Part shown: positions 2,710 through 19,679 of the stretch, piece by piece | How the letters are laid out: each line of letters opens with the position of its first letter | Position numbering within the stretch: the stretch's first letter is position 1 | NCBI GenBank assembly: GCA_019689975.1 | Contig: JADGGK010000018.1 | Span: 1 to 44,086 of the forward strand | Reading direction: 5' to 3' | Length of the DNA: 44,086 nucleotides | Source of the DNA: Pseudolabrys sp. | GTDB lineage: Bacteria > Pseudomonadota > Alphaproteobacteria > Rhizobiales > Xanthobacteraceae | The notes under the pieces: generated by a model | The model's input: only the letters and a program-made list of their open reading frames with translations | What the model was told of the DNA's origin: nothing | Database searches by the model: none | Program-made: the position numbers and the translations under genes

Positions 2710-2719
2710 GGTCACGACC

Positions 2720-3490
2720 TCAGGCGGCGGCATGGGCGCGGTTGGTGCGCGCCTGCAGATCTCGCAGCACTTCGAGCTCCTCGACGGTCGGCGGCGGGGT
2801 CTGCGCCGTTCTCGATGCGAATCTGACCGGCCAGCCGGTATTTTCCTGGATCTGCTCGCGCGTCACGCCCGGATGAATGGAGACGACCGTCATTTCCTTG
2901 GTCTCCGGATCGGGCTCGAAAAGAGCAAGATCTGTGATCAGCCGCGTGGGTCCTTTGGTCTTCACGCCGAGCTTTTCGCGCGAGTCCCCCCCGGCGACAT
3001 GGCCGATCGACGTCACGAAATCAAGCTTGTCGACGAAACTGCGCTTCGACTGCGCCATGATGATGAATATCTCACCGCACGATGTCGCAATCTCCGGCGC
3101 GCCGCCGCCGCCCGGCAGACGCACTTTAGGCTTGTCGTAGGGTCCGACCACGGTTGTGTTGAGATTCGCGTATTTGTCGATCTGGGCCCCGCCGAGAAAG
3201 CCGACTTTGATGCGACCGCCTTGCAGCCAGTAGCGGAACATCTCCGGCACCGACACGGTGGTGAGCGCGGTCTCGCACAACTCGCCGTCGCCGATAGAAA
3301 GCGGCAGAATGTCGGGCTTCGTACCCAGAGTCCCCGACTCGTAGATCAGGACGATATCCGGCGCGTGGATCAGACGCGCAAGATTTGCCGCCGCCGAAGG
3401 CATGCCGATCCCGACAAAGCAGACGTCGTCGTTCTTCAACGCCCTAGCGGCCGCAATGATCATCATTTCGTTGGGCTTGTAATCGGCCAT
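2720..3490 (-). CDS. pcaJ: 3-oxoadipate CoA-transferase, subunit B (CatJ type)
   Basis: This 256-residue subunit forms, with the preceding gene, the enzyme that moves CoA from succinyl-CoA to 3-oxoadipate. The motif IYESGTLG contains the Glu that forms the glutamyl-CoA thioester in the glutaconate-type class I transferases. It is longer than classical PcaJ and resembles the CatJ/GctB branch. The start MADYKPNEMMIIAAARAL is chosen because GGAG lies 8 nt upstream and the start sits 5 bp after the pcaI stop; a longer in-frame reading up to 3709 would overlap pcaI heavily. The next gene, pcaF, starts 10 bp after its stop, so the genes are co-transcribed. Confidence 0.92.
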   Translation of the reverse strand: MADYKPNEMMIIAAARALKNDDVCFVGIGMPSAAANLARLIHAPDIVLIYESGTLGTKPDILPLSIGDGELCETALTTVSVPEMFRYWLQGGRIKVGFLGGAQIDKYANLNTTVVGPYDKPKVRLPGGGGAPEIATSCGEIFIIMAQSKRSFVDKLDFVTSIGHVAGGDSREKLGVKTKGPTRLITDLALFEPDPETKEMTVVSIHPGVTREQIQENTGWPVRFASRTAQTPPPTVEELEVLRDLQARTNRAHAAA

Positions 3491-3495
3491 GTTCG

Positions 3496-5745: not shown

Positions 5746-5769
5746 CGGCGAGCCGGCGCGTCGCCCAAA

Positions 5770-5788
5770 TTGTTGTCCAGGACAACAA
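5770..5788. promoter_or_regulatory. Perfect 19-bp palindrome before the first ligase gene
   Basis: TTGTTGTCCAGGACAACAA is a perfect inverted repeat with 9-bp arms around a single A. It lies between the crotonase stop (5745) and the ligase start (5805). The TTGT...ACAA ends resemble operators of GntR/FadR-type regulators. It could instead be a hairpin in the mRNA, but there is no U-run after it. Confidence 0.6.
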
Positions 5789-5804
5789 AAATAACAGGGA
5801 CGAA

Positions 5805-7673
5805 ATGCCCGGCGTTTCTGGCACGACACGGTCTGCCGATGCCACGCCGTTGCGCGCGGTGAAGCTCGGCGTACCCGACGCCCATATCGAGACGAGAGCC
5901 GACGGCGCCATCCTCGTGCGCGCCAGGGCGCCGCTGGGACCATATCATGAAAAGCTCAGTCGGCCGCTCGAGCGATGGGCACGAGAAGCGCCAGAGCGTG
6001 TTTTTCTTGCCGAGCGAAACGGGCATCTCTGGCGATGTCTCAGCTATGCGGAAACGCTCGACACCGTGAAACGCATTGGCGCGGCACTGTTGCGGCGCGG
6101 ATTGTCTGTGGAACAACCGATCGCCATCCTGTCGGGCAACAGCATCGATCATGCATTGCTGGGGCTCGCCGCGGCCTATGTCGGTATTCCCTATGCGCCG
6201 ATTTCACCCGCCTATTCCCTTTTGTCGAGCGACTTCGGCAAATTGAAAGCCATGATGCAGCTGCTGACGCCGCGCCTGGTATACGCGAGCGACGGCCTCC
6301 TCTTCGCCCGAGCAATCGCCGCATGCGTACCGTCGGATACGGAACTGGTGGTGAGCCGCAATCCCCCCTCCGATCGCAAGACGACGATGTTTGCGAACCT
6401 GATGGACACAGAGGACTCCGTGGGTGTGGAAGCTGCTCATGCGACGATCACCCCGGACACGATCGTCAAGTTCCTGTTTACTTCTGGGTCGACGGGTGCG
6501 CCGAAAGCAGTGATCAACACGCAGCGAATGCTGTGCGCAAATCAGGCGATGATCGCCTCCGGATTTCGTTTCGTGGTCGATGAGCCGCCAGTGGTGGTCG
6601 ATTGGCTACCCTGGAGCCATACATTCGGAGGCAACCACAATTTCTACATGGTGCTCACCAATGGCGGTTCGCTCTATATCGACGACGGAAATCCGACGCC
6701 GGCGGGTACGCCGAAAACCGCACGCAACCTGAGCGAGGTCGCGCCGACGATCTATTTCAATGTGCCGAAGGGTTACGAGGCGCTGATTCCGCATCTGCGC
6801 GCGAGCGCGGACTTGCGCAGGAACTTTTTTTCTCGGCTGAAGGTGCTGTTTTATGCCGGAGCCGGTCTCAGCCAGGCGATACGCGACGAGCTTACCGAGC
6901 TGGCCGCGGCCACCATTGGCGAGCGCATCATCTTTCTGTCCTCGCTGGGTTCGACCGAGACGTCACCGCTCGCCCTGGCTTGCACGTGGGATTTCGCAAC
7001 GACCGGCAATATCGGGCTGCCGTGCCGCGGCGTGGAGCTCAAACTGGTGCCGCATGACGGCAAGCTCGAAGCGCGACTGCGCGGACCAAACATCACGCCG
7101 GGCTATTGGCGACAGCCTGAACTGACGCGGCGGGCCTTCGATGAGGAGGGCTTCTATCGGATCGGCGACGCGCTGCGATTCGCGGATCCGAACGACCCCT
7201 TCAAGGGCCTTTTGTTCGATGGTCGCATCGCCGAAGACTTCAAGCTGTCGACGGGAACTTGGGTGAGCGTCGGTCCTTTGCGCGCGCGCTTTATCGACCA
7301 TTGCACGCCTTATGTTCGCGACGTGGTCCTTACCGGCCTAAACCGCGACTTCATCGGGGCGCTGGTGTTTCCGGAGGTCGACGCATGTCGCAGACTGGCT
7401 GGTCTTCCCGCCGAAGCAACGCCGACACAAATCGTGGCGGCGACGGTCGTACGCCTCACCTTCGCGGAACTCCTGCGCACGTTTGCGGCCGCGGACGCCG
7501 GCTCCTCCATGCGTATTGAGCGCTTATTGCTCATGAGCGAGCCACCATCCATGGACAAGGGCGAGGCCACCGACAAGGGGTCGATCAACCAACAGGCTGT
7601 GCTCGCCAATCGAAGTGAGCTCGTAGAGGCGTTGTATCGCCACCCACCCGACGCGGCGGTGATTGCGCCATGA
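5805..7673 (+). CDS. Feruloyl-CoA synthetase-like AMP-dependent ligase 1
   Basis: This 622-residue adenylate-forming enzyme should activate a carboxylic acid to its CoA thioester with ATP. The phosphate loop [18 protein letters not shown], the A5-like LGSTETSPLAL, the hinge region [20 protein letters not shown] and the C-terminal [14 protein letters not shown] are the marks of the feruloyl-CoA synthase (FCS) subfamily. The ATG at 5805 is chosen because AGGGA lies 4-5 nt upstream and the sequence before it contains a palindromic site; an in-frame reading from 5619 would overlap the crotonase. The stop overlaps the start of a paralogue by 4 bp (ATGA), so the two are translationally coupled. The actual acid (ferulate, p-coumarate, caffeate or another) cannot be read from the sequence. 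Confidence 0.9.
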   Translation: MPGVSGTTRSADATPLRAVKLGVPDAHIETRADGAILVRARAPLGPYHEKLSRPLERWAREAPERVFLAERNGHLWRCLSYAETLDTVKRIGAALLRRGLSVEQPIAILSGNSIDHALLGLAAAYVGIPYAPISPAYSLLSSDFGKLKAMMQLLTPRLVYASDGLLFARAIAACVPSDTELVVSRNPPSDRKTTMFANLMDTEDSVGVEAAHATITPDTIVKFLFTSGSTGAPKAVINTQRMLCANQAMIASGFRFVVDEPPVVVDWLPWSHTFGGNHNFYMVLTNGGSLYIDDGNPTPAGTPKTARNLSEVAPTIYFNVPKGYEALIPHLRASADLRRNFFSRLKVLFYAGAGLSQAIRDELTELAAATIGERIIFLSSLGSTETSPLALACTWDFATTGNIGLPCRGVELKLVPHDGKLEARLRGPNITPGYWRQPELTRRAFDEEGFYRIGDALRFADPNDPFKGLLFDGRIAEDFKLSTGTWVSVGPLRARFIDHCTPYVRDVVLTGLNRDFIGALVFPEVDACRRLAGLPAEATPTQIVAATVVRLTFAELLRTFAAADAGSSMRIERLLLMSEPPSMDKGEATDKGSINQQAVLANRSELVEALYRHPPDAAVIAP

Positions 7674-9544
7674 CGAAGCTGGCCGACGCCCACAATCGCG
7701 ACGTGCGCACGCGACCCGTCACGCTAGGGCCTCGAGACGTTATCGTCGAGCATCGCGACGACCGGACCATCCTCTTGCGGTCACCGCAGCCGCTCGCAAC
7801 CTTTCCGCCCAGGATAACCGACCGGCTGAAATTCTGGGCCGCCGAAACGCCACAACGCATTTTCCTTGCCCAGCGTCAATCGCGCGGCGGGTGGCGCACG
7901 GTAACGTATAACGAGGCACTCCGCTTAGCCCGTCGGATCGGTGCGTCATTGCTGGCACGCGATTTGTCGGCCGAACGACCGATCGCGATCCTTTCGGGCA
8001 ACGACATCGAGCATGCCTTGCTGGCCCTCGGCGCGCTCTATGTCGGCATCCCCTACGCGCCCATCTCCCCGGCTTATTCACTGATGTCGAGCGATTTCGG
8101 ACGATTGCGCGCGATCGTCGAATTGATCACGCCAGGTCTGGTTTTCGTCTCTGACGGAGCAGTGTTTGCACCGGCGATCGAGGCAGTCATTCCGCGCGAC
8201 ATTGAATTGATTGTCGCGCGTCATCCTGTCGAGGGGCGTCGTACGACTTTGTTTGCGGATCTGTGCAAGATGCCGTCAGACCGGTCGGTCGATGCCGCTC
8301 ATGAGGCGGTCGGCCCCGACACCATTGCCAAGTTTCTCTTCACATCCGGATCAACCGGTGTCCCCAAATGCGTCATCAACACCCAACGCATGTGGTGTTC
8401 CAATCAACAGATGCTGTGCCAGTCACTGAGCTTTTTCCTCCACGAGCCTCCCGTGATCGTCGACTGGGCGCCCTGGCACCATACCGCCGGAGGTAATCAT
8501 GACGTCGGTCTCGTACTCTACAACGGCGGCACTTTTTACATTGACGAAGGCAAACCGCTGCCCGGTGCAATCGAGGAAACCGTCCGCAATCTGCGAGAGA
8601 TTGCGCCGAACTGGTATTTCACTGTGCCGAAAGGCTACGAGGCACTTTTGCCCTACCTGCGCAGCGACGCCATACTTCGGCGCAATTTCTTCTCACGCCT
8701 GAAAGTGCTTTGGTTTGCCGGTGCTGGCCTTTCGCAGCATATATTCGATGAAATACAGGAACTTGCGGTGCAGACCTGCGGCGAACGCATCCTGTTCTTG
8801 ACCGGCTTCGGTGCGACCGAAACAGCGCCGTTCGCGTTGGCGCGCACATGGCACACGGATAACGCCGCCAATGTCGGGCTACCTGCCCCGGGCGTTGAAC
8901 TCAAACTCGTACCCGAACAGGGCAAGCTTGAAGGGCGGCTGCGCGGCCCGAATATCACGCCAGGCTATTGGCGCCAGCCGCAATTCTCCGCCAATGCTTT
9001 TGACGAGGAAGGTTTCTATCGTCTCGGCGACGCTTTCAAATTCGCGGATCCCGGAGACGCCAGGCAGGGACTCCTGTTCGACGGCCGCATCGCCGAAGAC
9101 TTCAAACTGTCGACGGGGACGTGGGTGAGCGTCGGTCCGTTGCGTACGCGTTTTATCGACCACTTCTCACCTTACATACGTGACGCGGTGCTTGTGGGAG
9201 CCGATCGCGGCGAAATCGGCGCTCTGGTCTTCCCCGATGTCACGGCTTGTCGCGCGCTGGCGCCGGATTTGCCGGCCGACGCGCCGCCCGCTACCGTGCT
9301 CGGCGAGCCGCGCGTGCGCGCTTTTTTTATGCGACGTCTTGGAATGCTGGCGCGGCAAAGCCCCGGCTCGTCGACGCGCGTTGCCCGTATGCTGCTGATG
9401 TCCGAACCCCCGTCGATGGATAAAGGCGAGATCACCGACAAGGGTTCGATCAATCAGCGCGCCGTGCTCACGAATCGCGCGGAATTGGTCGAGGAACTTT
9501 ACGCACCGACGCCTTCCGCTCGCGTCATTCTCATTGGGGAGTGA
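7670..9544 (+). CDS. Feruloyl-CoA synthetase-like AMP-dependent ligase 2
   Basis: This 624-residue paralogue is roughly 60% identical by eye to the preceding ligase along its whole length. Motifs are intact: [48 protein letters not shown] and [14 protein letters not shown]. The differences cluster where substrate specificity is expected: DWLPWSHTFGGNHNF in ligase 1 reads [15 protein letters not shown] here, and FYAGAGLSQ reads WFAGAGLSQ. The start ATG overlaps the previous stop, and a GTG-started thiolase follows after 3 bp, so it lies in a tight operon. A different preferred acyl substrate, or a heteromeric role, is possible. The family call is firm and the substrate is inferred. Confidence 0.9.
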
Positions 9545-9547
9545 CCC

Positions 9548-10795
9548 GTGCCTAACCAGCAGGGCCTCGTCGCAGAATTCTCCGATGCCGTTCTCGTCGA
9601 TGGCGTGCGGACGCCCTTCGTCGATTATAATGGGGCGCTTGCGTCGGTTTCGCCGATCGACCTCGGCATCAAGGCCGCGCGTGAAATATTCAAGAAAACA
9701 CGTTTGTCGCCCGAGGACGTTGGGACTGTCATCGTCGGCTCGATGGCGCAGGCAAGTTTCGACGCATATATGCTGCCGAGACACGTGGGGCTTTACTCGG
9801 GGGTACCGCGGGAAACTCCGGCACATCTCGTACAGCGCGTATGCGGCACCGGCATCGAAGTGCTTGCGCAAGCGGCGGACGCCGTTTCGTTCGGACGCGT
9901 CGAACTCGCGCTTTGCGTGGGCACGGAGTCGATGAGCCGCAATCCGATCGCCGCTTACACACATCGCGGCGGTTTTCGCCTCGGGCAAGTCGAGTTCAAG
10001 GATTTCCTCTGGGAAGCATTGCGCGATACCGGATGCGACTTGACGATGGGCGAGACGGCGGAGAATCTCGCGCGCCAATATCAGATTACGCGGAGCGACG
10101 CGGATGCATATGCCTCGCGCTCGTTCGAGCGTGCATTGAACGCGCAGCAGAACGGCTTTCTGGAGGGTGAGCTCGCTCCCGTTGTGAGCGAAGATTTTAC
10201 CGCGGACGGCCTCAAGCCACGGGGAATTGCGGTCAAGAGTGACGTCAAGGCCGACACTCACGTGCGACCATCGCCGGTCGAGCGGCTAGCGACAATCAAA
10301 CCGGCCTTCGGCGGCGTGCAGACCGGCGGCAACTCGTCCGGGATTGTCGATGGCGCGGCGGCGGCCCTCGTGGCCAGCACGGGCTATGTTCGCAGGCTAG
10401 GCAAATCGCCGCTCGCACGCATCATCTGCGCTGCAGCGGTCGGTTGTCCGCCGGAAGTCATGGGCATCGGGCCCGTGCCGGCCGTTAGGGCCGTGCTCGA
10501 GCGCGCCGGTCTTACTCTCGCCGACATCGATCGGTTCGAAATCAACGAGGCCTTCGCGGCTCAGGTCATGGCCTGCGCGCGCGAACTGGAGCTCGACGAG
10601 GATAAACTGAATGTCAACGGCGGTGCCATTGCCATAGGTCATCCGCTTGGGGCTACTGGAATTCGTCTGGCACTCACTCTCGCTCGCGAACTCAGGCATT
10701 CCGGGCTACGCTATGGCATCGCTTCCGCCTGCATCGGCGGCGGCCAGGGTATCGCCATGTTGATTGAGAATACGGACCACCGGAGAATGAACTGA
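9548..10795 (+). CDS. Acetyl-CoA acetyltransferase-type thiolase
   Basis: This 415-residue thiolase carries the full catalytic set: Cys99 in QRVCGTGIE, His365 in AIGHPLGATG and Cys395 in SACIGGGQG. It would cleave a 3-oxoacyl-CoA with CoA, releasing acetyl-CoA. The GTG start follows the ligase stop by 3 bp, and the stop overlaps the next start (TGATG). With the ligases, crotonase and SDR it completes a set of beta-oxidation activities, so an aryl-3-oxopropionyl-CoA is a reasonable substrate, giving an aroyl-CoA such as 4-hydroxybenzoyl-CoA. It differs strongly from PcaF in this window (for example QRVCGTGIE against LNRLCASGM). The substrate is inferred from context. Confidence 0.88.
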   Translation: MPNQQGLVAEFSDAVLVDGVRTPFVDYNGALASVSPIDLGIKAAREIFKKTRLSPEDVGTVIVGSMAQASFDAYMLPRHVGLYSGVPRETPAHLVQRVCGTGIEVLAQAADAVSFGRVELALCVGTESMSRNPIAAYTHRGGFRLGQVEFKDFLWEALRDTGCDLTMGETAENLARQYQITRSDADAYASRSFERALNAQQNGFLEGELAPVVSEDFTADGLKPRGIAVKSDVKADTHVRPSPVERLATIKPAFGGVQTGGNSSGIVDGAAAALVASTGYVRRLGKSPLARIICAAAVGCPPEVMGIGPVPAVRAVLERAGLTLADIDRFEINEAFAAQVMACARELELDEDKLNVNGGAIAIGHPLGATGIRLALTLARELRHSGLRYGIASACIGGGQGIAMLIENTDHRRMN

Positions 10796-11556
10796 TGGAT
10801 ATTAAAGGGCAGTCTGCCATCGTCACCGGTGGCGCGTCGGGGCTCGGCGCGGCCTGCGCCCGCACGCTGGCGGCCGCCGGGGCCAGGGTCGCCGTGTTCG
10901 ACATCAACGAGAAGGCCGCCGCCGCTATCGCTTCGGAGCTGAAGGGCATTGCGGTGCCGTGCGATGTCGCCGATGAAAAAAGCGCCAGCACCGCAATTGA
11001 AAGGGCCGCCGCGGAACATGGACCCGCACGTATCCTCGTCAACTGCGCCGGAATCGGACCCGCCAAGCGGATCGTCGGCCGCGATGGACCGATGCCGCTT
11101 GCCGATTATGAGCGCGTGATCCGCGTCAACCTGATTGGCACCTTCAACATGTTGCGGCTGGTTGCGTCGGCGATGCAAGGACTGCCGCCGCTCGGTGACG
11201 GAGAGCGAGGAATCATTGTCAATACGGCTTCGGTCGCCGCATTCGAAGGGCAGATCGGTCAGGCTGCCTATTCATCGTCGAAAGGGGGTGTCGTCGCGCT
11301 GACAATTCCGGCAGCGCGCGAGTTTGCACAATTCGGAATCCGAGTCGTCGCCATCGCGCCGGGTATATTCGGCACTCCCATGCTGAAATCGTTGCCGCAG
11401 GAAGTGCAGGAGTCGCTCGCGGCGTCGGTGCCGTTTCCCAGACGGCTCGGCGAACCGCGCGAATTCGCGGCACTGGTGATGCATTGCGTCCACAACACCT
11501 ACCTCAACGGCGAGGTCATTCGCCTTGACGGTGCCTTGCGCATGGCGCCGCGATAA
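10795..11556 (+). CDS. SDR family 3-hydroxyacyl-CoA dehydrogenase-like protein
   Basis: This 253-residue short-chain dehydrogenase has the NAD-binding TGGASGLG at 11-18, NCAGIG, and the tetrad Asn112, Ser146, Tyr159 and Lys163 (NTASVAAF...QAAYSSSKGG). It resembles type 2 3-hydroxyacyl-CoA dehydrogenases (HSD17B10-like), which have a longer loop after NCAGIG. The acidic residue after strand 2 (VFDINEK) favours NAD over NADP. In this operon it would oxidise the 3-hydroxyacyl-CoA made by the crotonase to the 3-oxo form used by the thiolase. The start overlaps the thiolase stop by one base, which implies coupled translation. Confidence 0.88.
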   Translation: MDIKGQSAIVTGGASGLGAACARTLAAAGARVAVFDINEKAAAAIASELKGIAVPCDVADEKSASTAIERAAAEHGPARILVNCAGIGPAKRIVGRDGPMPLADYERVIRVNLIGTFNMLRLVASAMQGLPPLGDGERGIIVNTASVAAFEGQIGQAAYSSSKGGVVALTIPAAREFAQFGIRVVAIAPGIFGTPMLKSLPQEVQESLAASVPFPRRLGEPREFAALVMHCVHNTYLNGEVIRLDGALRMAPR

Positions 11557-11563
11557 ATTCGCT

Positions 11564-11608
11564 CGCCGCTCGTTGCAAGCCGTAGCAAACCACGGCCTGC
11601 GAGCGGCG
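11564..11608 (+). other. Strong nested hairpin between SDR and thioesterase genes
   Basis: CGCCGCTCG at 11564-11572 is perfectly complementary to CGAGCGGCG at 11600-11608, and the interior holds GCCGT (11579-11583) against ACGGC (11592-11596). No U-run follows. It could be an mRNA processing or stabilising element or a partial terminator that lowers thioesterase expression. Confidence 0.4.
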
Positions 11609-11650
11609 GCTGCCGACGAAACCGCCCATCCGAAGAAAGCCATTCCTTAC

Positions 11651-12076
11651 ATGACGACATACTCAAACAGACGCGTGGTGCGCATTGAATGGGGCGATTG
11701 CGACCCGGCGGGAATCATCTTCTATCCGCGTTATTTTGAGATCTTCGACGCTTCGACGGCCGCATTGTTCGAACGTGCGCTCGGGATGACGAAATTCGAC
11801 CAACTTAAACACTTCAATTTCGCCGGCTATCCGCTCGTGCGTACTCGTGCCAAATTTATCAAGCCGACCCGTTTTGGCGACGATGTCACGGTGGAAAGCA
11901 CCATTACCTTCGGTCGATCGAGTTTCAACGTCGAGCACAAGCTTTCATGCCATGATCAGCTATGCTCCGAATGCTCGGAAACCCGCGTGTGGGTGATTCG
12001 CGATCCCTTGACCGGCAATATCAGGTCGCACCCTGTGCCGCAGGAGGTGCTGGCGAAGTTCGCACGCAAAAACTAG
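11651..12076 (+). CDS. 4-hydroxybenzoyl-CoA thioesterase-like hotdog protein
   Basis: This 141-residue hotdog-fold protein matches the 4HBT family. The signature RIEWGDCDPAGIIFYPRYF lines up with the Pseudomonas 4-hydroxybenzoyl-CoA thioesterase, in which the Asp before PAG is catalytic (Asp18 here). It would hydrolyse an aroyl-CoA to the free acid. In context it is the natural exit from the side-chain pathway: a hydroxybenzoyl-CoA made by the thiolase becomes a hydroxybenzoate that can lead to protocatechuate. The ATG at 11651 gives a normal length; reading further upstream would overlap the SDR gene. A 94-bp gap with a hairpin separates it from the SDR gene, so it may be expressed at a different level. 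Confidence 0.86.
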   Translation: MTTYSNRRVVRIEWGDCDPAGIIFYPRYFEIFDASTAALFERALGMTKFDQLKHFNFAGYPLVRTRAKFIKPTRFGDDVTVESTITFGRSSFNVEHKLSCHDQLCSECSETRVWVIRDPLTGNIRSHPVPQEVLAKFARKN

Positions 12077-12412: not shown

Positions 12413-12907
12413 CTATTCGATTTCGGCGGCGATTTTCTGCAATAAACGCACGAAACCTGGTCGGTTCTTCCGACCGACAATACGGTCGAGTTTACGCTCA
12501 TGCAGACGCGCGCAGCGCGTCATTTCGGCGAGCGTCTTCCGCCCGGAAGGCGTAAGGCTGAGCTGGTACGTTCGACGATCGTGGTCGACGCGCCTGCGTT
12601 CCACCAACCCTCGCCGTACGAGATCTTCGACCACGGGCGTCAAGCTTGACTTGTCACGACCATTGGCAAGCGACAGCTCGGTTTGACTGATACCCGGATT
12701 GAGCCCTATCAGTGTCAGCGTTGCGAAGCGCCCCGGGCTTTCGCCGATTTTGTATGAACGGCGCGAGAAGGCGGCGAAGGTCGCTTCCTGCGCCATGCGC
12801 AGGTTGAAGCCGATCCAATGCGTCAATCGGCCAAATTTTATTGATCTCACAAAGGCTTCGCTGCCCTTCTCGCGCCGCCTGGAGCGTCTTCCTTTGCCCC
12901 CAGCCAC
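12413..12907 (-). CDS. MarR family transcriptional regulator
   Basis: This 164-residue protein is a winged-helix MarR regulator. The HTH and wing are visible in ATLTLIGLNPGISQTELSLA, DKSSLTPVVEDLVRRGLVE and the wing RRRVDHDRRTYQLSLTPSG. I place the start at GTG 12907 because AAGGAGG (12912-12918 on the forward numbering) precedes it by 4 nt. The N-terminal 20 residues are then very basic and unlike the family, and GTG 12850 is an alternative that begins close to helix 1. It is divergent from the TRAP operon, and an inverted repeat fit for a MarR dimer lies in the shared spacer. MarR regulators of this context (CouR, HcaR, FerR types) often respond to aryl-CoA thioesters. The ligand here is unknown. 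Confidence 0.88.
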   Translation of the reverse strand: MAGGKGRRSRRREKGSEAFVRSIKFGRLTHWIGFNLRMAQEATFAAFSRRSYKIGESPGRFATLTLIGLNPGISQTELSLANGRDKSSLTPVVEDLVRRGLVERRRVDHDRRTYQLSLTPSGRKTLAEMTRCARLHERKLDRIVGRKNRPGFVRLLQKIAAEIE

Positions 12908-12962
12908 CTTGCCTCCTTGCCTGCCGATGCGTTCGCGCCGCAAAATTCCGTATCCGCGATTT

Positions 12963-12980
12963 TAGTTTGGCATCAAACCA
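12963..12980. promoter_or_regulatory. Putative MarR operator, copy 1 (marR / TRAP spacer)
   Basis: TAGTTTGGCATCAAACCA is an inverted repeat (TrGTTTG-nnnn-CAAACyA) in the divergent spacer. It is identical at 16 of 18 positions to the copy at 15970-15987. TTGGCA inside it could serve as a -35 box for the TRAP operon, and on the minus strand TAAAAT (12964-12959) could be a -10 box for marR, so a bound dimer would block both directions. Confidence 0.7.
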
Positions 12981-13004
12981 ACTTTGCCGTACCAACTTTA
13001 CAAC

Positions 13005-13058
13005 GGCGTCGATATCCGGCTCAATTGCTTAACAGGCCGTGTATCGCCGGTCGACGCC
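13005..13058 (+). promoter_or_regulatory. Long hairpin in the TRAP operon leader
   Basis: GGCGTCGA (13005-13012) and CCGGC (13016-13020), separated by a TAT bulge, pair with the continuous right arm GCCGG-TCGACGCC (13046-13058). This gives a 13-bp stem with a 25-nt loop, ending 8 nt before the ribosome site AGGGAGG at 13067-13073. It may control translation or stabilise the mRNA. No known riboswitch class was recognised. Confidence 0.5.
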
Positions 13059-13079
13059 TAGCCAATAGGGAGGATGTTC

Positions 13080-14114
13080 ATGCACTATCGCTTCGCGCGC
13101 CTCGTCCTTGCAGCCGCCGTCATGACCCTGGCCGGTGCAACAGACCGCGTCCAGGCGCAGGACAAAACCTTCGATTTGAGAATTTCTCACTGGGTTCCCC
13201 CTTCGCATCCCTTGCAGAAAGCGCTCGAGGAATGGGGTGCATCGGTCGAGAAGGCATCCGGGGGTACCATCCACTACAAGGTCTACCCCTCGCAACAACT
13301 CGGCAAGGCTTTCGACCATTACGACATGGCACGCGATGGGATCGCGGACCTGACCTATGTCAATCCCGGCTATCAGCCCGGTCGTTTTCCCATTATCGCC
13401 GCGGGAGAATTGCCATTCCTTATGTCGAATGCCAAGGGCGGCACGCGGGCCATCGATGCCTGGTATCGGAAATATGCGGCAAAGGAGATGAGGGACGTCA
13501 AATTCTGCCTCGCCTTCGTTCATGATCCGGGCACGTTTCACTCGCGTACCAAGAAGATACTGGTCCCGAGCGACGTCAAGGGGATGAAGATCCGCCCCGC
13601 GCATGCAACCATGGCGACGTGGGTGACTTTGCTCGGCGGAACGAACGTGCAGGCTGCGGCACCGGAGGTGCGCGACATCCTCGATAAGGGCGTTGCCGAC
13701 GCGGTTACGTTCCCCTGGGGTTCGGTGCCGCTGTTCGGGATCGACAAGGTGACGAAATATCACATGAATGCGCCGCTCTACGTCACCACTTTCGCGCTGG
13801 TGTTCAACAAGCATCTCTATGAACAAATGTCAGCCAGGCAGAAAAAGGTGATCGACGACCATTGCACCAACGAGTGGTCGCTCAAGGTCGCCGCACCATG
13901 GGCCGATTTCGAGCACTCCGGCATCGACAAGATCAAGGCCGAGGCCGGGCACGAAGTTTACGACATTACCCCCGCGCAACTCGCCGAATGGAGGAAATCG
14001 GCCGAGCCGCTGCACAAAGCTTGGGCCGACAACGTGAAAAAGGCGGGGATTGACCCCGACACGGCGATGAAAGAGCTCGCCGCCCAGCTCGTGACATATG
14101 GGGCAAGCTATTGA
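13080..14114 (+). CDS. TRAP transporter solute-binding protein (DctP family)
   Basis: This 344-residue periplasmic binding protein delivers a carboxylate to the TRAP permease. A signal peptide covers about residues 1-25, with cleavage likely after VQAQ. The mature part begins DKTFDLRISHWVPPSHPLQ, typical of the family, and KGMKIRPAHA contains the conserved Arg that usually binds the substrate carboxylate. I prefer ATG 13080 to ATG 13074 because AGGGAGG then sits 6 nt upstream. The next gene starts within its stop codon. R. palustris uses a TRAP binding protein (TarP) for p-coumarate near MarR-controlled hydroxycinnamate genes, so an aromatic acid ligand is plausible but not shown. Confidence 0.92.
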   Translation: MHYRFARLVLAAAVMTLAGATDRVQAQDKTFDLRISHWVPPSHPLQKALEEWGASVEKASGGTIHYKVYPSQQLGKAFDHYDMARDGIADLTYVNPGYQPGRFPIIAAGELPFLMSNAKGGTRAIDAWYRKYAAKEMRDVKFCLAFVHDPGTFHSRTKKILVPSDVKGMKIRPAHATMATWVTLLGGTNVQAAAPEVRDILDKGVADAVTFPWGSVPLFGIDKVTKYHMNAPLYVTTFALVFNKHLYEQMSARQKKVIDDHCTNEWSLKVAAPWADFEHSGIDKIKAEAGHEVYDITPAQLAEWRKSAEPLHKAWADNVKKAGIDPDTAMKELAAQLVTYGASY

Positions 14115-14644
14115 TGAGCGGGCAAGAGGCCCCCGTGCCTGCACCTATCGACCGTTTCATCGGCGTGATCGAACTGACGGCGGCAGGATTTCTTGCCGCC
14201 GTTACGGCAATAACCTTCATATCGGTGTTGCTTCGTTACTTTTTTTCGTGGTCGATTCCAGACGCATACGATATGAGCGCGTTGTTGCTCGGCACGCTCA
14301 TCTTCTGGGGCATGGCAGGGGCGGGTTATCGGGGCGACCATATTACGGTCGATCTGCTGTGGAGCGCATCATCGCGCACTTTGCAGCGAACGATGGATAT
14401 TTTCGCCAATCTTGTGACGCTCGGATCGATGGCCGTGTTCACGTGGATGATGGCGTTGAAGGTTATCGATACGCGTCAGGATAATGTTCTGACCTTTGAT
14501 TTGCGGCAGCCAGTCTGGATCTACTACGCCCTGGCCTGGTTCGGTCTACTCGCCGCTGTCGCGTTGATGGTGATCAGGCTCGCGCGGCTGCTCACGGCGC
14601 CGGAGCGCCTCGCCTCACGATTGCCCGCGGACATGATCGAGTGA
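14114..14644 (+). CDS. TRAP transporter small permease (DctQ family)
   Basis: This 176-residue inner-membrane protein has four predicted helices (around 15-40, 50-70, 92-115 and 130-155), the normal DctQ layout. The segment GTLIFWGMAGAGYRGDHITV contains the GxHI-like feature of the family. The ATG overlaps the stop of the binding protein by one base, and the large permease starts 10 bp later. It works with DctM in sodium-driven import of the solute delivered by the binding protein. The family call rests on layout and context more than on a strong sequence motif. Confidence 0.88.
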   Translation: MSGQEAPVPAPIDRFIGVIELTAAGFLAAVTAITFISVLLRYFFSWSIPDAYDMSALLLGTLIFWGMAGAGYRGDHITVDLLWSASSRTLQRTMDIFANLVTLGSMAVFTWMMALKVIDTRQDNVLTFDLRQPVWIYYALAWFGLLAAVALMVIRLARLLTAPERLASRLPADMIE

Positions 14645-14654
14645 AAGGCAAGGC

Positions 14655-15953
14655 ATGAGCAGCGATACGGTCGCGATTGTCGGCTTTGTGGCCTTGTTCG
14701 TCCTCATGCTGCTGCGCGTGCCGGTCGGCATTGCCATGGGGCTCGTGGGCATCTGCGGATTCGGTTATCTCGCCGACTTCGGACCTGCCTTGAAGCTGCT
14801 GGCACAATCTCCGATTCGGACCGCCACGTCGGCCGAATTTGCGGTAATACCGATGTTCCTGCTGATGGGTGCGCTCGCGTCCACTTCGGGAATGAGCCGC
14901 GAATTATTCCGTGCCGCCAACTCCTTCCTCGGTCACCTCAAGGGCGGATTGGGCATCGCGACGATCGCAGCCTGCGGCTGCTTTGCCGCAATCTGTGGTT
15001 CCTCTGTGGCAACCGCCGCCACTTTTTCCTCGGTCGCATATCCGGAGATGCGCCGCTACGGCTACCCGCAAAGTTTTGCCACCGGGGTTGTTGCCGCAGG
15101 CGGGACGCTTGGAATCATGATCCCTCCTTCCACCGTTTTCGCGGTCTACGGACTGATTACCGAGCAGGATATTGGCAAGTTGTTCATCGCCGGCATCATC
15201 CCGGGCGTAATCGCCGTGACCATGTATATCATCACCATCAACATTATCGGCTTTGCGCGGCCGGGCTTCCTGCCGGCCGGTCCCCGCAGTCCGTGGAGTG
15301 AGCGGCTGGCGGCGCTGCGCGACATCTGGGCGGTGATACTGCTTTTCATCTTCATCATCGGTGGACTTTACGCAGGCATTTTCACCGCAACCGAAGCGGC
15401 CGGGGCCGGGGCCGGCGGGGCGTTTCTCATCGCCCTCTCGCGTGGCAAGCTCACGCGCGAAGGGTTCTGGCGAAGTTGCGTCGAAACGGTGCGTACCACG
15501 GCCGCCGTGTTCACGATCCTTATCGGCGCGCTGTTATTTGGCTATTTTCTCACGATCACGCAGACGCCGCAGAAAGTTACTACCTTTCTCACCGGTCTCG
15601 GACTGGGCCCTCACGGGGTGCTGCTGCTGATCATGCTCATGTATTTGCTGCTTGGCTGCATCATGGACGCCATGGCGATGATCATTTTGACGATCCCGAT
15701 CATCTTTCCGGTCATCAAGACGCTCGGCTTCGATCCCATCTGGTTCGGCGTCATCATCGTCATGACGGTGGAGCTCGGCCTTATCCATCCTCCTGTCGGA
15801 ATGAATGTGTTCGTCATCAAAAGCGTGGTCAAGGACGTGAAACTGTCGACGGTGTTCTATGGGGTCATCCCCTTCGTGATCACCGATATCGTGCGGCTCG
15901 GGATCCTTATTATGTTCCCGATCCTGGCAACATGGCTACCTTCGCATATGTAG
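14655..15953 (+). CDS. TRAP transporter large permease (DctM family)
   Basis: This 432-residue protein is the transport channel of the TRAP system. It is hydrophobic throughout, with about 11-12 helices. Family marks include LLRVPVGIAMGLVG near the N-terminus, GGTLGIMIPPSTVFAVYG, and LIHPPVGMNVFVIKSV near the C-terminus. The ATG is preceded by AAGG. It ends the TRAP operon; only 51 bp separate its stop from iorA, but that gap holds its own promoter-like box and a second operator copy, so iorA probably starts a separate transcript controlled in the same way. Confidence 0.94.
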   Translation: MSSDTVAIVGFVALFVLMLLRVPVGIAMGLVGICGFGYLADFGPALKLLAQSPIRTATSAEFAVIPMFLLMGALASTSGMSRELFRAANSFLGHLKGGLGIATIAACGCFAAICGSSVATAATFSSVAYPEMRRYGYPQSFATGVVAAGGTLGIMIPPSTVFAVYGLITEQDIGKLFIAGIIPGVIAVTMYIITINIIGFARPGFLPAGPRSPWSERLAALRDIWAVILLFIFIIGGLYAGIFTATEAAGAGAGGAFLIALSRGKLTREGFWRSCVETVRTTAAVFTILIGALLFGYFLTITQTPQKVTTFLTGLGLGPHGVLLLIMLMYLLLGCIMDAMAMIILTIPIIFPVIKTLGFDPIWFGVIIVMTVELGLIHPPVGMNVFVIKSVVKDVKLSTVFYGVIPFVITDIVRLGILIMFPILATWLPSHM

Positions 15954-15964
15954 ACGGGCCATGG

Positions 15965-15987
15965 TATAATAGTTTGCTATCAAACCA
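15965..15987 (+). promoter_or_regulatory. TATAAT promoter box with MarR operator copy 2 before iorA
   Basis: TATAAT lies at 15965-15970, with a weak -35 candidate TTCGCA at 15941-15946 (18-bp spacer). TAGTTTGCTATCAAACCA at 15970-15987 starts on the last base of the -10 box, so it would cover the transcription start. It matches the site at 12963-12980 at 16 of 18 positions, differing only in the two central bases. The position suits repression by steric block. Confidence 0.7.
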
Positions 15988-16004: not shown

Positions 16005-18146
16005 ATGGAACGCTCATTTAAAAAGGAAGTGCAGGCGCTGCGGCTTGGAAATGGCGATACTTTTCGCGGCGAAGGCATCCTTGCCGTCACCAAGGCATTG
16101 CTGCAGTCCGGCGTTTCGTACGTCGGCGGCTATCAAGGCGCACCGGTATCGCACCTGCTCGATGTTCTAGTCGATGCCGAAGACATCCTGCGCGAGCTTG
16201 GCGTACATCTCGAGACCTGCACGAATGAAGCTTCGGCCGCCGCCATGCTCGGAGCCTCGATCAACTACCCCTTGCGCGGCGCGGTTACGTGGAAGTCGAT
16301 TGTCGGCACCAACGTCGCGGCCGACGCGCTTTCCAATCTTGCGTCGCCCGGTGTCGTCGGTGGCGCCATGATCATCCTTGGAGAGGATTATGGGGAAGGC
16401 GCCAGCGTCATACAGGAGCGCTCGTACGCCTACGCGCTCAAATCGACGATCTGGCTGCTCGATCCGCGCCCTGACCTGCCTTCGATCGTGCGCACCGTCG
16501 AGAAGGGGTTTGAGCTTTCCGAGGCCAGCCACACGCCGGTGATGCTCGAATTGCGCATTCGCGCCTGCCATGTAACCGGCGAATTTCCCGCCAAGGACAA
16601 TCGCAGGGCGCAATATTCGGGCGTCAGCCGCATTCCTGGCCCGGTGCGTTTTGAATACGGTCGACTCGCACACCCGCCGGTTACTTTCCTGCAGGAAAGG
16701 CTGAAGACCGAGGAGCGCCTACCCGCCGCGTGCGCTTTCATTCGCGATCACCGGCTTAACGAATTCATCGACGGTGACGTGCGGGAAATCGGCATCATCG
16801 TCATGGGCGGGCTCACCAACAGCGTGCTGCGCGCTCTCGAGCGCCTCGGGCTTGCCGACATCTTTGGCGTATCGCGCATTCCAATACTCGTGCTCAATGT
16901 CGTATATCCATTGGTGCCGGAAGAAATTCGCGCTTTCTGTACCGGCAAGCGCGCCGTTCTCGTGGTCGAGGAAGGCTATCCCGACTACATCGAACAGACG
17001 GTCAATGTCGAGTTGCGTCGCGCCGGACTCTCGACCAGGGTTTATGGCAAAGGCCCGCTGCCCAAGACCGGCGAATATACGTCGGAGGTGTTGTTGCACG
17101 GGCTCGCCGCGTATTTGCAGACCACGCGACCGACCGGGGTTGACATTGACGCCATTGCCGCGAAAGCGCGCGCCGTCACCGCCCGCAAAACCGACGTCTC
17201 CGCCGCGCTCGGCGGGTTGCCGCCGCGGCCACCGACGTTCTGTACGGGTTGCCCCGAGCGGCCGGTTTTTTCCGCGCTGAAGCTGATGCAGCGCGAGGTG
17301 GGTCCCACACACATCAGCGCCGACATCGGTTGCCATTCATTTGCAACCTTCGCTCCGTTTTCAATGGGCAATTCCATTCTTGGCTATGGGATGTCTCTCG
17401 CGAGTGCGGCTGCCGTCGGCCCCAACATGGACAGGCGTCCCATCGCCGTGATGGGGGACGGCGGATTCTGGCATAACGGGCTGATCACCGGCGTCGCATC
17501 GAGCTTGTTCAACAAGGGCGACGGAATACTCGTCATTATGCAGAACGGCTACGCATCCGCGACCGGCCAGCAGTACATACCGTCGAGCGCCGCGGGCGGC
17601 GACAGCCGCGCGCCTGGCATGAGCATCGAACAGACGCTGCGCGCCATGGGGGTGAAATGGCTGCGTACGGTACGCAGCTACAGCGTGGCCAGAATGGCGG
17701 CCGCATTGAAGGCGGCCATGAAAACAGCCGAACGCGGCCTAAAAGTGATCATCGCCGATGGCGAATGCCAACTGGCGCGGCAACGGCGTGTGCGCGCGGA
17801 AGAACTAGAAAAATTGAAACGCGGCGAGCGCGTGAAGCGCGTGCGCTACGGGATCGACGATGACATTTGCACGGGCGACCATTCCTGCATCCGTCTTTCG
17901 GGCTGTCCGTCATTGACGGTAAAGCCTTCGCCTGATCCTTTGCGCACGGACCCGGTGGCGACGGTGGTCGATAGCTGTGTCGGCTGCGGCCTGTGCGGCG
18001 AGGTCGCGCATGCCGCCGTCTTGTGTCCGTCCTTCTATCGAGCCGAGGTGGTGCGCAATCCGCATTGGACCGATCGTGCAATCTTCCACATACGGCAGCG
18101 GGTGATCGGTTGGCTTGGCGGTTACAACGTTAAGGCGGCGGCATGA
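16005..18146 (+). CDS. iorA: Indolepyruvate:ferredoxin oxidoreductase-like alpha subunit
   Basis: This 713-residue ThDP and iron-sulfur protein belongs to the arylpyruvate:acceptor oxidoreductases, which convert a 2-oxo acid and CoA to acyl-CoA and CO2. An N-terminal pyruvate-oxidoreductase-type domain covers about 15-190. The ThDP-binding half holds FCTGCPERPVF (near 412) and MGDGGFWHNGL...IMQNGYASATG (near 485). Two C-terminal cluster regions follow. The second, CVGCGLCGEVAHAAVLCP (near 658), is a normal 4Fe-4S motif. The first, CTGDHSCIRLSGCP (near 622), lacks the CxxCxxC core. The gene is joined to iorB without a gap. The 2-oxo acid substrate and electron acceptor are not known, and no ferredoxin gene is near. 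Confidence 0.88.
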   Translation: MERSFKKEVQALRLGNGDTFRGEGILAVTKALLQSGVSYVGGYQGAPVSHLLDVLVDAEDILRELGVHLETCTNEASAAAMLGASINYPLRGAVTWKSIVGTNVAADALSNLASPGVVGGAMIILGEDYGEGASVIQERSYAYALKSTIWLLDPRPDLPSIVRTVEKGFELSEASHTPVMLELRIRACHVTGEFPAKDNRRAQYSGVSRIPGPVRFEYGRLAHPPVTFLQERLKTEERLPAACAFIRDHRLNEFIDGDVREIGIIVMGGLTNSVLRALERLGLADIFGVSRIPILVLNVVYPLVPEEIRAFCTGKRAVLVVEEGYPDYIEQTVNVELRRAGLSTRVYGKGPLPKTGEYTSEVLLHGLAAYLQTTRPTGVDIDAIAAKARAVTARKTDVSAALGGLPPRPPTFCTGCPERPVFSALKLMQREVGPTHISADIGCHSFATFAPFSMGNSILGYGMSLASAAAVGPNMDRRPIAVMGDGGFWHNGLITGVASSLFNKGDGILVIMQNGYASATGQQYIPSSAAGGDSRAPGMSIEQTLRAMGVKWLRTVRSYSVARMAAALKAAMKTAERGLKVIIADGECQLARQRRVRAEELEKLKRGERVKRVRYGIDDDICTGDHSCIRLSGCPSLTVKPSPDPLRTDPVATVVDSCVGCGLCGEVAHAAVLCPSFYRAEVVRNPHWTDRAIFHIRQRVIGWLGGYNVKAAA

Positions 18147-19679
18147 ATGGATAATCTGCGTCCCATCAATTTGCTGATTGCGGCGCTGGGCGGCGAGGGC
18201 GGCGGCGTACTTACCGAATGGATCGTGGCCGCAGCAAGCGAGATGGGTTTTCCGGTACAATCGACCTCGATCCCGGGCGTCGCCCAACGCACCGGAGCGA
18301 CGACCTATTACATTGAAATATTTCCGCAAAAGACAGACCTCCTGGGCGATAAGCGGCCGGTTATGGCGCTCGCACCCGGAATCGGCGATGTCGACATCGT
18401 GATTGCAAGCGAATTGCTGGAGGCTGGCCGCGTCATAACGAATGGATTCGTCACGCCTGATCGTACCGTGATGATCGCCTCGACCAGTCGCCTCTATACC
18501 ATGGACGAGAAGATCGCCATGGGTGACGGCCGCTTCGACCAGGAAAAGCTCATCGAGGCCGTCAGACGGAACGCGAAAGAAGCGTTCCTCGTCGACATGG
18601 ACACCTTGACGCGGCGCTCGGGCTCGATGCCCAGCGCCGTCATGTTGGGTTTGATTGCCGGCTGCGGCCGATTACCTATCACCGCAGAACGATTCGAGTC
18701 GGTGATCCGCGCCGACGGAAAGGCAACTGACGCGAATCTTCGCGGTTTCCGCGCAGGGCTCGAGGCCGTGCAGGCAAGGCGTGAATGGACGGGCGAACCG
18801 ACGCCCAAGAAGTTCGCCCCCAAGACGTCGGAACTCGTCGAACACGAGGTTACTTACACGTTGCCATTGGTCGCGCAGGAAATTGCCATAGAAGGCGTGC
18901 GGCGATTGATCGCTTACCAGGGCGTGGGCTACGCGCAGCTTTATCTGAGCCGCTTGCGTGCGATTAACGACGTGGATCAGACCGTTGGCGGTCAGGGCAA
19001 ACTGGTATGCGACGTTGCGCGTCAGCTCGCCGTCCGTATGTCCTTTGAGGACGTCGTGCGCGTCGCCGAGGTCAAAATATCTCGGGAACGTCTTCGGCGT
19101 ATTGCGCAAGACGAATTACGTGCAAATGGCGAGCCGTTTTCCGTCCACGATTTTCTCAAGCCGGGAATCGAAGAATTGACTCAGCTCTTACCGCCTATCA
19201 TTGCTCGGCCGATCCTATGGTTGGCCGAGCGATGGGAGTGGTTCGGGCGCATTCATTTCGGAATGAAGATCAACGTCACGTCCATCAGCGGCTACCTCCG
19301 ATTTCTTGTTCTGGCCAAGCTCAAATGGTTACGACCATACGGAATTCGTTATCAGCAGGAACAGGAACAGATCGAAAGCTGGCTCGATCTCGTCAAAAAG
19401 GCTGCATTGATATCGATTGACTTCGCCCACGAGGTCATCGAGTGTGCGCGCCTCATCAAGGGATATGGCGACACGCATGCGCGTGGGCTTGCGAACTATC
19501 GGCTGATAGAAACGCGCGTCATTCGGCCGGCCCTCGCCGGCGGCCTGCCGCCCGCGAAGGCCGCTGACGCCGTTGCCAGTGCGCGCACCGCGGCGCTCAA
19601 GGATCCGGAAGGTGAAAGTCTCGCCAAGTGCCTCGCCGAGATCGACGCGCGCGTCCCACTTCCCGCCGCGGCGGAATAA
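18147..19679 (+). CDS. iorB: Indolepyruvate oxidoreductase beta subunit with C-terminal extra domain
   Basis: This 510-residue protein starts on the base after the iorA stop. Residues 1-190 are the pyruvate oxidoreductase gamma-type domain of IorB (LLIAALGGEGGGVLTEWI, STSIPGVAQRTGATTYYIE). Classical IorB of archaea ends there, at about 200 residues. Here some 300 more residues follow, largely helical, with RLIAYQGVGYAQLYLSRL and a tail rich in Ala, of the type annotated as DUF6537 in proteobacterial relatives. The function of this extra domain is not known to me; a role in contacts with the electron acceptor is only a guess. With IorA it forms the oxidoreductase. Confidence 0.85.
   Translation: MDNLRPINLLIAALGGEGGGVLTEWIVAAASEMGFPVQSTSIPGVAQRTGATTYYIEIFPQKTDLLGDKRPVMALAPGIGDVDIVIASELLEAGRVITNGFVTPDRTVMIASTSRLYTMDEKIAMGDGRFDQEKLIEAVRRNAKEAFLVDMDTLTRRSGSMPSAVMLGLIAGCGRLPITAERFESVIRADGKATDANLRGFRAGLEAVQARREWTGEPTPKKFAPKTSELVEHEVTYTLPLVAQEIAIEGVRRLIAYQGVGYAQLYLSRLRAINDVDQTVGGQGKLVCDVARQLAVRMSFEDVVRVAEVKISRERLRRIAQDELRANGEPFSVHDFLKPGIEELTQLLPPIIARPILWLAERWEWFGRIHFGMKINVTSISGYLRFLVLAKLKWLRPYGIRYQQEQEQIESWLDLVKKAALISIDFAHEVIECARLIKGYGDTHARGLANYRLIETRVIRPALAGGLPPAKAADAVASARTAALKDPEGESLAKCLAEIDARVPLPAAAE

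What the first reader, a model, noticed from the sequence alone, without database searches (positions are those of the whole stretch)
12963..15987. Two near-identical inverted repeats link a MarR regulator, a TRAP importer and an IorAB oxidoreductase
TAGTTTGGCATCAAACCA (12963-12980) and TAGTTTGCTATCAAACCA (15970-15987) agree at 16 of 18 positions and differ only at the centre. One lies in the marR/TRAP divergent spacer and the other starts on the last base of a TATAAT box before iorA. The arms (TrGTTTG / CAAACyA) suit a dimeric winged-helix repressor. This defines a small regulon whose substrate is imported and then oxidatively decarboxylated. The operator and the regulon are, as far as I know, not described.
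Basis: partly seen in the sequence, partly recalled or inferred. Interest (0 to 1): 0.72.

Follow-up and report, generated by a model that had tools for sequence, protein, structure and literature searches.

The report
MarR operators controlling aromatic-acid uptake
Two matching DNA palindromes, the only two of their kind in this environmental bacterium's genome and conserved in its relatives, very probably let one regulator switch on both the uptake pump and the first processing enzyme for an aromatic acid.

Summary
The two 18-mers are the only matches to TRGTTTGN4CAAACYA in the 3.57 Mb genome, which belongs to Pseudolabrys or close kin, judged from relatives. In 41 of 41 congeneric genomes with this MarR a site lies just upstream of marR: 25 exact, 11 with one mismatch, 5 with two or three. 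A reversed-pattern control reaches three in 5 of 41 and never fewer. The second site, between dctM and iorA, recurs with at most two mismatches in 11 of 20 relatives with that junction and usually overlaps a -10-like box.

Best reading: a MarR autorepressor with two operators co-controls a TarPQM-like aromatic-acid TRAP importer and an IorAB-like 2-oxoacid oxidoreductase. The locus resembles the Rhodopseudomonas cou cluster, but the regulator is not CouR (33% identity, other recognition helix). In ten loci a thiamine-diphosphate enzyme replaces IorAB; in four the module lies beside 4-hydroxyphenylacetate genes. Both suggest an aryl 2-oxo acid. Binding, ligand and substrate are untested. No description was found in the open-access papers searched. 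A well-supported new member of a known kind.

The parts
12963..12980 (.). Operator 1, TAGTTTGGCATCAAACCA, in the marR/dctP divergent spacer
   Evidence: a site is found upstream of marR in 41 of 41 congeneric genomes with the MarR
15970..15987 (.). Operator 2, TAGTTTGCTATCAAACCA, between dctM and iorA
   Evidence: at most 2 mismatches in 11 of 20 relatives with a dctM-iorA junction
15941..15970 (+). Promoter-like TTCGCA-18-TATAAT with TG extension before iorA; its last T is the first base of operator 2
   Evidence: overlap recurs in 8 of 12 distinct relatives compared
12413..12943 (-). marR, 176 aa from TTG (start codon uncertain)
   Evidence: PF12802 42.1 (cutoff 27), PF01047 36.5 (cutoff 24.6); winged-helix model
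12996..13003 (+). CTTTACAA box, conserved on the dctP side of operator 1 in most relatives compared; possible -35 region, not proven
13074..14114 (+). dctP, TRAP solute-binding protein (start 13074 or 13080)
   Evidence: PF03480; 59% identical to the TRAP binding protein near couR
14111..14644 (+). dctQ, TRAP small permease
   Evidence: PF04290
14655..15953 (+). dctM, TRAP large permease
   Evidence: PF06808; TIGR00786 333.7 bits, cutoff 268.45
16005..18146 (+). iorA-like 2-oxoacid oxidoreductase subunit
   Evidence: TIGR03336 246.9 bits, below its 650.9 cutoff
18147..19679 (+). iorB-like subunit with DUF6537
   Evidence: PRK08312 554 bits, cutoff 348; PF20169
19827..21596 (+). Thiamine-diphosphate enzyme (PRK08327 family); conserved neighbour, control by the operators not shown
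   Evidence: 662 bits, cutoff 456; neighbourhood
5619..12076 (+). Conserved neighbours: two PRK12582 CoA ligases (5619-7673, 7670-9544), thiolase (9548-10795), SDR (10795-11556), 4HBT thioesterase (11525-12076); no operator of this type found in front of them
   Evidence: ligases 50-53% to the cou-cluster ligase
781..4356 (-). Conserved neighbours: pcaH (781-1488), pcaF (1504-2733), CoA-transferase (3496-4356)

Best explanation
The two palindromes are operators of the adjacent MarR protein, a homodimeric winged-helix repressor. Without ligand it sits on operator 1, in the spacer between marR and dctP, and represses its own gene and the dctPQM importer; it also sits on operator 2, which begins on the last base of the iorA -10 box, and blocks transcription start at iorAB. 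When an aromatic acid or a product made from it (an aryl 2-oxo acid or an aryl-acyl-CoA) accumulates, MarR lets go and both units are made together: uptake by a TarPQM-like TRAP system, then conversion of the 2-oxo acid by the IorAB-like enzyme. Shown by computation: the sites, their uniqueness in the genome, conservation and position, and the MarR and TRAP families. Inferred: binding by this MarR, repression rather than activation, ligand and substrate.
For: Only two sites in the genome. In 41 of 41 congeneric genomes with the MarR (best MarR match per genome, stretch from 420 bp before to 45 bp after the aligned start) the best site has 0 mismatches in 25, 1 in 11, 2 in 3 and 3 in 2; reversed pattern in the same stretches: 3 in 5, 4 in 19, 5 in 14, 6 in 3; coding stretch of equal length: 4 in 19, 5 in 17, 6 in 5. 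G3 T4 T5 G7 / C12 A14 A15 C16 are invariant in the 40 relatives, and some variants change both arms alike: TAGTTGG..CCAACTA in G034, TCG..CGA in G016 and G023. In a family sample 7 of 187 non-congeneric genomes match; 5 of the 7 lie at the module or at a 49-60% MarR homologue. In 80 loci, 45 matches to TRGTTKGN4CMAACYA in 39 loci, 44 of them within 400 bp 5' of marR, iorA or dctP; reversed 0. At order level, sites with at most 3 mismatches precede 10 of 15 MarR homologues of 35-53% identity, reversed control 0 of 15. The site stays with marR where iorA, not dctP, is the divergent neighbour (G018), and G019 has both sites in the window's two places. Operator 2 overlaps a -10-like box in 8 of 12 distinct relatives. 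Nearest solved fold of the MarR model: DNA-bound CouR.
Against: No binding or expression data. In 6 of 20 relatives the dctM-iorA gap has no site (4 or more mismatches: L100, L105, L106, L110, L132, L158), and in 3 the best site has 3 mismatches, one of them (L121) doubtful; in the 10 loci with a thiamine-diphosphate enzyme after dctM there is no site in that gap. Of the 41 of 80 loci without a match to the extended pattern, 17 have a MarR of 50-68% identity, most of them the L116-L130 type. One exact site in G040 is unlinked, as are two in other genera (L055, L056), equal to the 2 of 198 reversed-control genomes; L055 lies 24 kb from a couR homologue in G166. MarR proteins can also activate. 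The IorA-like protein is far below the curated cutoff.
Confidence: 0.82

Rival explanations
1. The MarR acts as an activator, or as activator and repressor, at dctP: operator 1 lies just upstream of a conserved box that could be the dctP -35 region, where a bound factor could help RNA polymerase.
For: In the relatives shown, operator 1 is 1-9 bp upstream of CTTTACAA/CTTTACAT where that box is readable. Activating MarR proteins exist (passages of PMC4737184 and PMC9613470).
Against: Operator 2 covers the edge of the iorA -10 box and the likely start site, where binding should block. In the window the box is 15 bp from operator 1, after a 9-bp direct repeat; a tight activation geometry should not tolerate that.
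Confidence: 0.12
2. The sites are bound by another regulator, and the MarR is only a neighbour.
For: No binding was tested. One exact site (G040) and two in other genera lie away from any detected module gene.
Against: The site accompanies marR in 41 of 41 congeneric genomes although its other neighbour changes (dctP or iorA), and precedes distant MarR homologues too. Where the presumed recognition helix differs (CouR), the six couR spacers read lack the palindrome.
Confidence: 0.05
3. The regulator and operators are as proposed, but the substrate is a hydroxycinnamate (p-coumarate class), with the CoA ligases as the first catabolic step and IorAB serving a side route.
For: DctP is 59% identical to the TRAP binding protein of the cou cluster, and the ligases and thioesterase also have cou-cluster homologues; TarP of R. 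palustris binds coumarate, caffeate, ferulate and cinnamate (PMC3610893, passages).
Against: Only TRAP and iorAB carry the operator in the window; the ligase genes do not. In four loci the same module lies beside 4-hydroxyphenylacetate genes instead of ligases, and MarR homologues at order level sit beside a thiamine-diphosphate enzyme in 14 of 15 loci.
Confidence: 0.35

Closest known systems
CouR and TarPQM p-coumarate cluster of Rhodopseudomonas palustris
   Same: MarR regulator near a TRAP aromatic-acid importer, CoA ligase and thioesterase; TRAP proteins 59/47/73% identical, ligase 50-53%, thioesterase 53%; nearest solved MarR by sequence and fold.
   Different: MarR 33% identical; presumed recognition helix RDKSSLTP against ILRPNFVAM; six couR spacers read lack the palindrome and those six genomes have no exact match at all. 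IorAB, the thiamine-diphosphate enzyme and the thiolase gave no hit in the 19.5 kb cou stretch. The CouR footprint paper was not held.
Saro_0803 / nov1 repressor of Novosphingobium aromaticivorans
   Same: Best NCBIfam match of the MarR (65 bits); its inverted repeat also overlaps a -10 box (PMC10046596, passages).
   Different: Far below the 200-bit cutoff; operator GCAATA-N6-TATTGC, not TAGTTTG-N4-CAAACTA.
CouR of Rhodococcus jostii RHA1
   Same: MarR repressor of hydroxycinnamate genes with one operator shared by divergent promoters (PMC4737184, passages).
   Different: Operator cATTGA-N5-TCAATg.
iad auxin-degradation loci of Variovorax and Bradyrhizobium
   Same: IorAB-like genes in a MarR-regulated aromatic locus (PMC9613470: abstract, passages and sections 8-9).
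   Different: The Variovorax MarR is only a distant match (7kfo 21.1 bits; about 20-22% identity by fold); no iadDE-type dioxygenase among the ORFs scanned.
HpaR of homoprotocatechuate operons
   Same: MarR regulator of 4-hydroxyphenylacetate catabolism; the module lies beside hpa genes in four loci.
   Different: 28.7 bits, cutoff 121.2; L106 has a separate true HpaR, 149.8 bits.

Membership tests
MarR family regulator | MarR winged-helix domain above the curated cutoff | tested here: met
   PF12802 42.1 (27), PF01047 36.5 (24.6); model pLDDT 82.4, top PDB hits are MarR proteins
MarR family regulator | Dimer that binds an inverted repeat and releases it with ligand | not testable with these tools
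   Inverted repeat present and conserved; no binding assay
CouR (R. palustris) | Orthology to CouR | tested here: not met
   33% identity; CouR homologues at E up to 1e-40 in 52 of 198 family genomes, none in the own genome or the 10 congeners sampled
CouR (R. palustris) | Same operator | tested here: not met
   No TRGTTTGN4CAAACYA in the six couR spacers read nor elsewhere in those six genomes; the published footprint itself was not available
Saro_0803 family | NCBIfam NF053777 cutoff | tested here: not met
   65.1 bits, cutoff 200
HpaR | TIGR02337 cutoff | tested here: not met
   28.7 bits, cutoff 121.2
TRAP transporter | DctP, DctQ and DctM in one gene group | tested here: met
   PF03480, PF04290, PF06808 above cutoffs; genes 13074-15953
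Indolepyruvate:ferredoxin oxidoreductase (IorAB) | IorA above the IOR_alpha cutoff TIGR03336 | tested here: not met
   246.9 bits, cutoff 650.9; hence 'IorAB-like'
Indolepyruvate:ferredoxin oxidoreductase (IorAB) | IorB in the PRK08312 subfamily | tested here: met
   554 bits, cutoff 348
iad auxin-degradation locus | iadDE ring-hydroxylating dioxygenase | tested here: inconclusive
   None among the ORFs scanned, but not all 167 ORFs were scanned

The most novel reading that the evidence does not exclude
An undescribed MarR subfamily senses an aryl 2-oxo acid, or the aryl-acyl-CoA made from it, and controls a portable import-plus-decarboxylation module. Its wiring adapts to the enzyme in place: a second operator in front of iorAB, or read-through into a thiamine-diphosphate enzyme that overlaps or abuts dctM. 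The same module feeds either a hydroxycinnamate/protocatechuate branch or the homoprotocatechuate branch.
Probability: 0.35. Interest if true: 0.58.

Novelty: new member of a known kind. Interest (0 to 1): 0.43.

Why it matters
It gives a precise, testable operator (TRGTTKGRNNYCMAACYA) and regulator for a gene module widespread in Pseudolabrys and related Hyphomicrobiales, mostly known from metagenome bins. It would give a role to MarR proteins that match no curated NCBIfam family, tie IorAB-like enzymes to aromatic-acid uptake, and offer a candidate biosensor for an aromatic acid. It is useful rather than surprising.

Tried and rejected
Chance repeat: rejected. CouR orthologue with the CouR operator: rejected. 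Further regulon members in the own genome: none with the pattern or its looser form; the three 2-mismatch places (L022-L024) have none of the tested module genes within 1.5 kb. A site at the ligase genes: none in the window at up to 3 mismatches. Fate of the product: HpaD-like proteins in the own genome score at most 201.9 bits, cutoff 321.4, and no phenylacetyl-CoA oxygenase PaaA was found, so the downstream route is open. Identity of 7nqg: no relevant paper found; placed only by its position near couR. The core promoters of dctP and marR could not be assigned.

Literature: in a library of open-access papers only. The R. palustris CouR paper was not held. Papers were seen as follows: PMC9613470 outline, abstract, passages, sections 8 and 9; PMC9594313, PMC4737184, PMC3610893, PMC10046596 and PMC9765128 passages only; all others search listings.
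Full report
WHAT WAS CHECKED. Both 18-mers stand at 12963-12980 and 15970-15987 and differ only at positions 8-9. TRGTTTGNNNNCAAACYA occurs exactly twice in the 3,574,772-base genome, at these two places; the reversed pattern occurs 0 times. At up to 2 mismatches the genome has 5 places against 10 for the reversed control, so nothing beyond the two exact sites stands out. The wider TNGTTKGNNNNCMAACNA again gives only the two. Because the pattern was drawn from these two sites, the real test is in other genomes.

CONSERVATION IN THE GENUS. 27 of 43 congeneric genomes (own included) have an exact match; reversed control 1 of 43. I located all 30 exact places: 29 lie at marR|dctP, marR|iorA or dctM|iorA, and 1 (G040, L179) does not. 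A MarR match at E up to 1e-20 was found in 41 of 43 genomes (two genomes have a second, weaker match that I did not examine). In all 41 the best site, in the stretch from 420 bp before to 45 bp after the aligned start of marR, has 0 mismatches (25 genomes), 1 (11), 2 (3) or 3 (2). The reversed pattern in the same stretches has best values of 3 (5), 4 (19), 5 (14) and 6 (3); a coding stretch of equal length has 4 (19), 5 (17) and 6 (5). At 3 mismatches site and control overlap, so the two weakest cases (G016, G023) rest on their symmetric arms, TCGTT..AACGA, rather than on the count. Positions G3, T4, T5, G7 and C12, A14, A15, C16 are invariant in the 40 relatives; the refined consensus is TRGTTKGRNNYCMAACYA, which a few variants still break at positions 1, 2, 17 and 18. 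The titles of the named loci point to Pseudolabrys and kin.

BEYOND THE GENUS. In a family sample of 198 genomes 14 match: 7 of 11 congeneric and 7 of 187 others. Of these 7, two (genus g38) have the site between dctM and iorA, one (g34) in front of iorA, two (g12) in front of a 49-51% MarR homologue, and two (L055, L056) are at none of the tested genes. The reversed control also matches in 2 of 198. L055 lies on the same contig as a couR homologue, 24 kb away. In the 80 loci (1.365 Mb; the call returns at most 80, and many are the same genomes as above, so they are not independent), the exact pattern has 27 hits in 26 loci and TRGTTKGN4CMAACYA has 45 hits in 39 loci, 44 of them within 400 bp 5' of marR, iorA or dctP; reversed controls 0. 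Of the 41 loci without a match, 24 have a MarR under 50% identical or none that my search recovered; 17 have one of 50-68%, most of them the type in which marR precedes iorAB (L116-L130), some of which show AATTAGTTGGGTACAAAACCAATT instead. At order level 15 of 397 genomes, own included, have a MarR match at E up to 1e-25. In the 15 loci from the 14 other genomes (MarR 35-53%) the best site upstream has 0 (1 locus), 1 (2), 2 (3), 3 (4), 4 (4) or 6 (1) mismatches; reversed control 4 (3), 5 (4), 6 (8). In 14 of these 15 a thiamine-diphosphate enzyme of 33-37% identity to the window's lies in the same short locus.

THE SECOND SITE. could read a dctM-iorA junction in 20 distinct relatives (the window and the duplicates L058 and L059 left out). 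The best site in the gap has at most 2 mismatches in 11, 3 in 3 (one of them, L121, doubtful) and 4 or more in 6; the reversed control is never under 4. In the window the site begins on the last T of TATAAT (15965-15970), part of TTCGCA-18-TATAAT with an extended TG, the best promoter-like match of the region. In 8 of 12 distinct relatives compared, the operator's first T likewise ends a TAnnnT hexamer, such as TATATT, TAATAT, TAAAAT, TAGAAT, TAAGAT; L178, L089, L125 and L091 do not fit. A protein bound there should cover the -10 edge and the expected start. In the four hpa-type loci the gap is short and bare, so read-through from dctPQM is likely there (inference).

THE REGULATOR. The window MarR passes the Pfam MarR models but reaches none of the cutoffs of the 9 NCBIfam models it hits; best is Saro_0803, 65 of 200 bits. 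Its closest solved relative is CouR of R. palustris (72.7 bits), and the AlphaFold model (mean pLDDT 82.4) has DNA-bound CouR (6c2s) as best fold match, TM 0.91 by target. The presumed recognition helix RDKSSLTP is kept in the congeneric rows aligned and close in g34 and g12 (RDKSTLTP, RDTSSLTP, RNTSSLTP), whereas CouR has ILRPNFVAM; that this stretch is the recognition helix is family knowledge, not a computed complex. CouR homologues at E up to 1e-40 occur in 52 of 198 family genomes. I read only the six couR spacers in readable orientation (L063, L064, L065, L067, L072, L079): they share an AT-rich stretch and no TAGTTTG palindrome, and those six genomes have no exact match anywhere.

THE STRUCTURAL GENES. 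DctPQM are TRAP proteins. DctP matches PDB 7nqg (E 7.5e-130). That chain is 98-99% identical to a protein 13 kb from couR in three genomes of the genus with the nearest CouR. This fits TarP, which binds coumarate, caffeate, ferulate and cinnamate and is encoded in the coumarate locus (PMC3610893, passages); equating 7nqg with TarP is my inference. In the 19.5 kb cou stretch L203 the TRAP genes are 59/47/73%, the ligase 50-53% and the thioesterase 53% identical to the window's; IorAB, the thiamine-diphosphate enzyme, thiolase, SDR and pca genes gave no hit there. IorB passes PRK08312; IorA is well under the IOR_alpha cutoff. In Aromatoleum, IorAB is described as turning phenylpyruvate into phenylacetyl-CoA (PMC9765128, one passage).

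WHAT THE MODULE ACTS ON. Hints from gene order. First, in 10 loci another thiamine-diphosphate enzyme takes the place of iorAB and overlaps or abuts dctM (two of the ten profiled, both PRK08327 above cutoff), and distant MarR homologues also sit beside such an enzyme. Second, in L100, L105, L106 and L110 the module lies next to 4-hydroxyphenylacetate genes. In L106 HpaE, HpaD, HpaH and HpaR are above cutoff, HpaB-2 (758 of 885 bits), HpaC and HpaG below; in L105 HpaE is above cutoff; in L100 and L110 HpaB-2 is 761 and 750 bits, below cutoff; the remaining hpa genes of L100, L105 and L110 were judged only by the look of their ORFs, and no HpaE-like ORF was seen in L100. Third, in the window type the neighbours are CoA ligases, thiolase, SDR, thioesterase and protocatechuate genes. 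An aryl 2-oxo acid such as 4-hydroxyphenylpyruvate fits the first two best; hydroxycinnamate uptake fits the third. The own genome has no PaaA match and only sub-cutoff HpaD-like proteins, so the route after IorAB is not known.

VERDICT. The finding is real, and its regulatory reading is the best-supported one. The operator sequence was not found in the searched papers, nor the regulon, in an open-access library only. It is a new member of a well-known kind, MarR autorepressors of aromatic catabolism. What is unusual is the second operator before iorAB and the exchange of IorAB for a thiamine-diphosphate enzyme beside the same regulator.

Noticed in passing
window 12977-12999: A 9-bp direct repeat ACCAACTTT (12977-12985, 12991-12999) leaves the CTTTACAA box 15 bp from operator 1, against 1-9 bp in the relatives shown where the box is readable.
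   Followed up: partly
marR|dctP spacers of relatives, e.g. L028 at 1395, L036 at 1391: 22 of 41 congeneric genomes have a weaker palindrome TGGTTNNNNNNCCAACTT in the fetched stretch, about 60 bp on the dctP side of the operator in those inspected; reversed control 0. The window lacks it.
   Followed up: partly
L135 9880-9921 (Pelagibacterium limicola): Two exact sites in tandem before a 43% MarR homologue followed by a thiamine-diphosphate enzyme match; a cultured strain.
   Followed up: no
L179 1735-1752 (G040): An exact site with none of the tested module genes in the 4 kb fetched; an extra target or chance.
   Followed up: no
window 17867-18055, end of iorA: The C-terminal cysteine motifs of the IorA-like protein (CTGDHSCIRLSGCP, CVGCGLCGEVAHAAVLCP) look unlike the usual ferredoxin spacing (recalled); no ferredoxin Pfam model matched.
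   Followed up: no
L138 upstream of its MarR: A palindrome with a 5-bp centre, TTGTTTG-TCTAT-CAAACAA, precedes a 39% MarR homologue in a Rhodospirillales bin.
   Followed up: no
L086 9327-9344: The one extended-pattern match of the 80 loci that lies away from marR, iorA and dctP (TGGTTGGGGCTCCAACTA), beyond the CoA-transferase match near the contig end.
   Followed up: no
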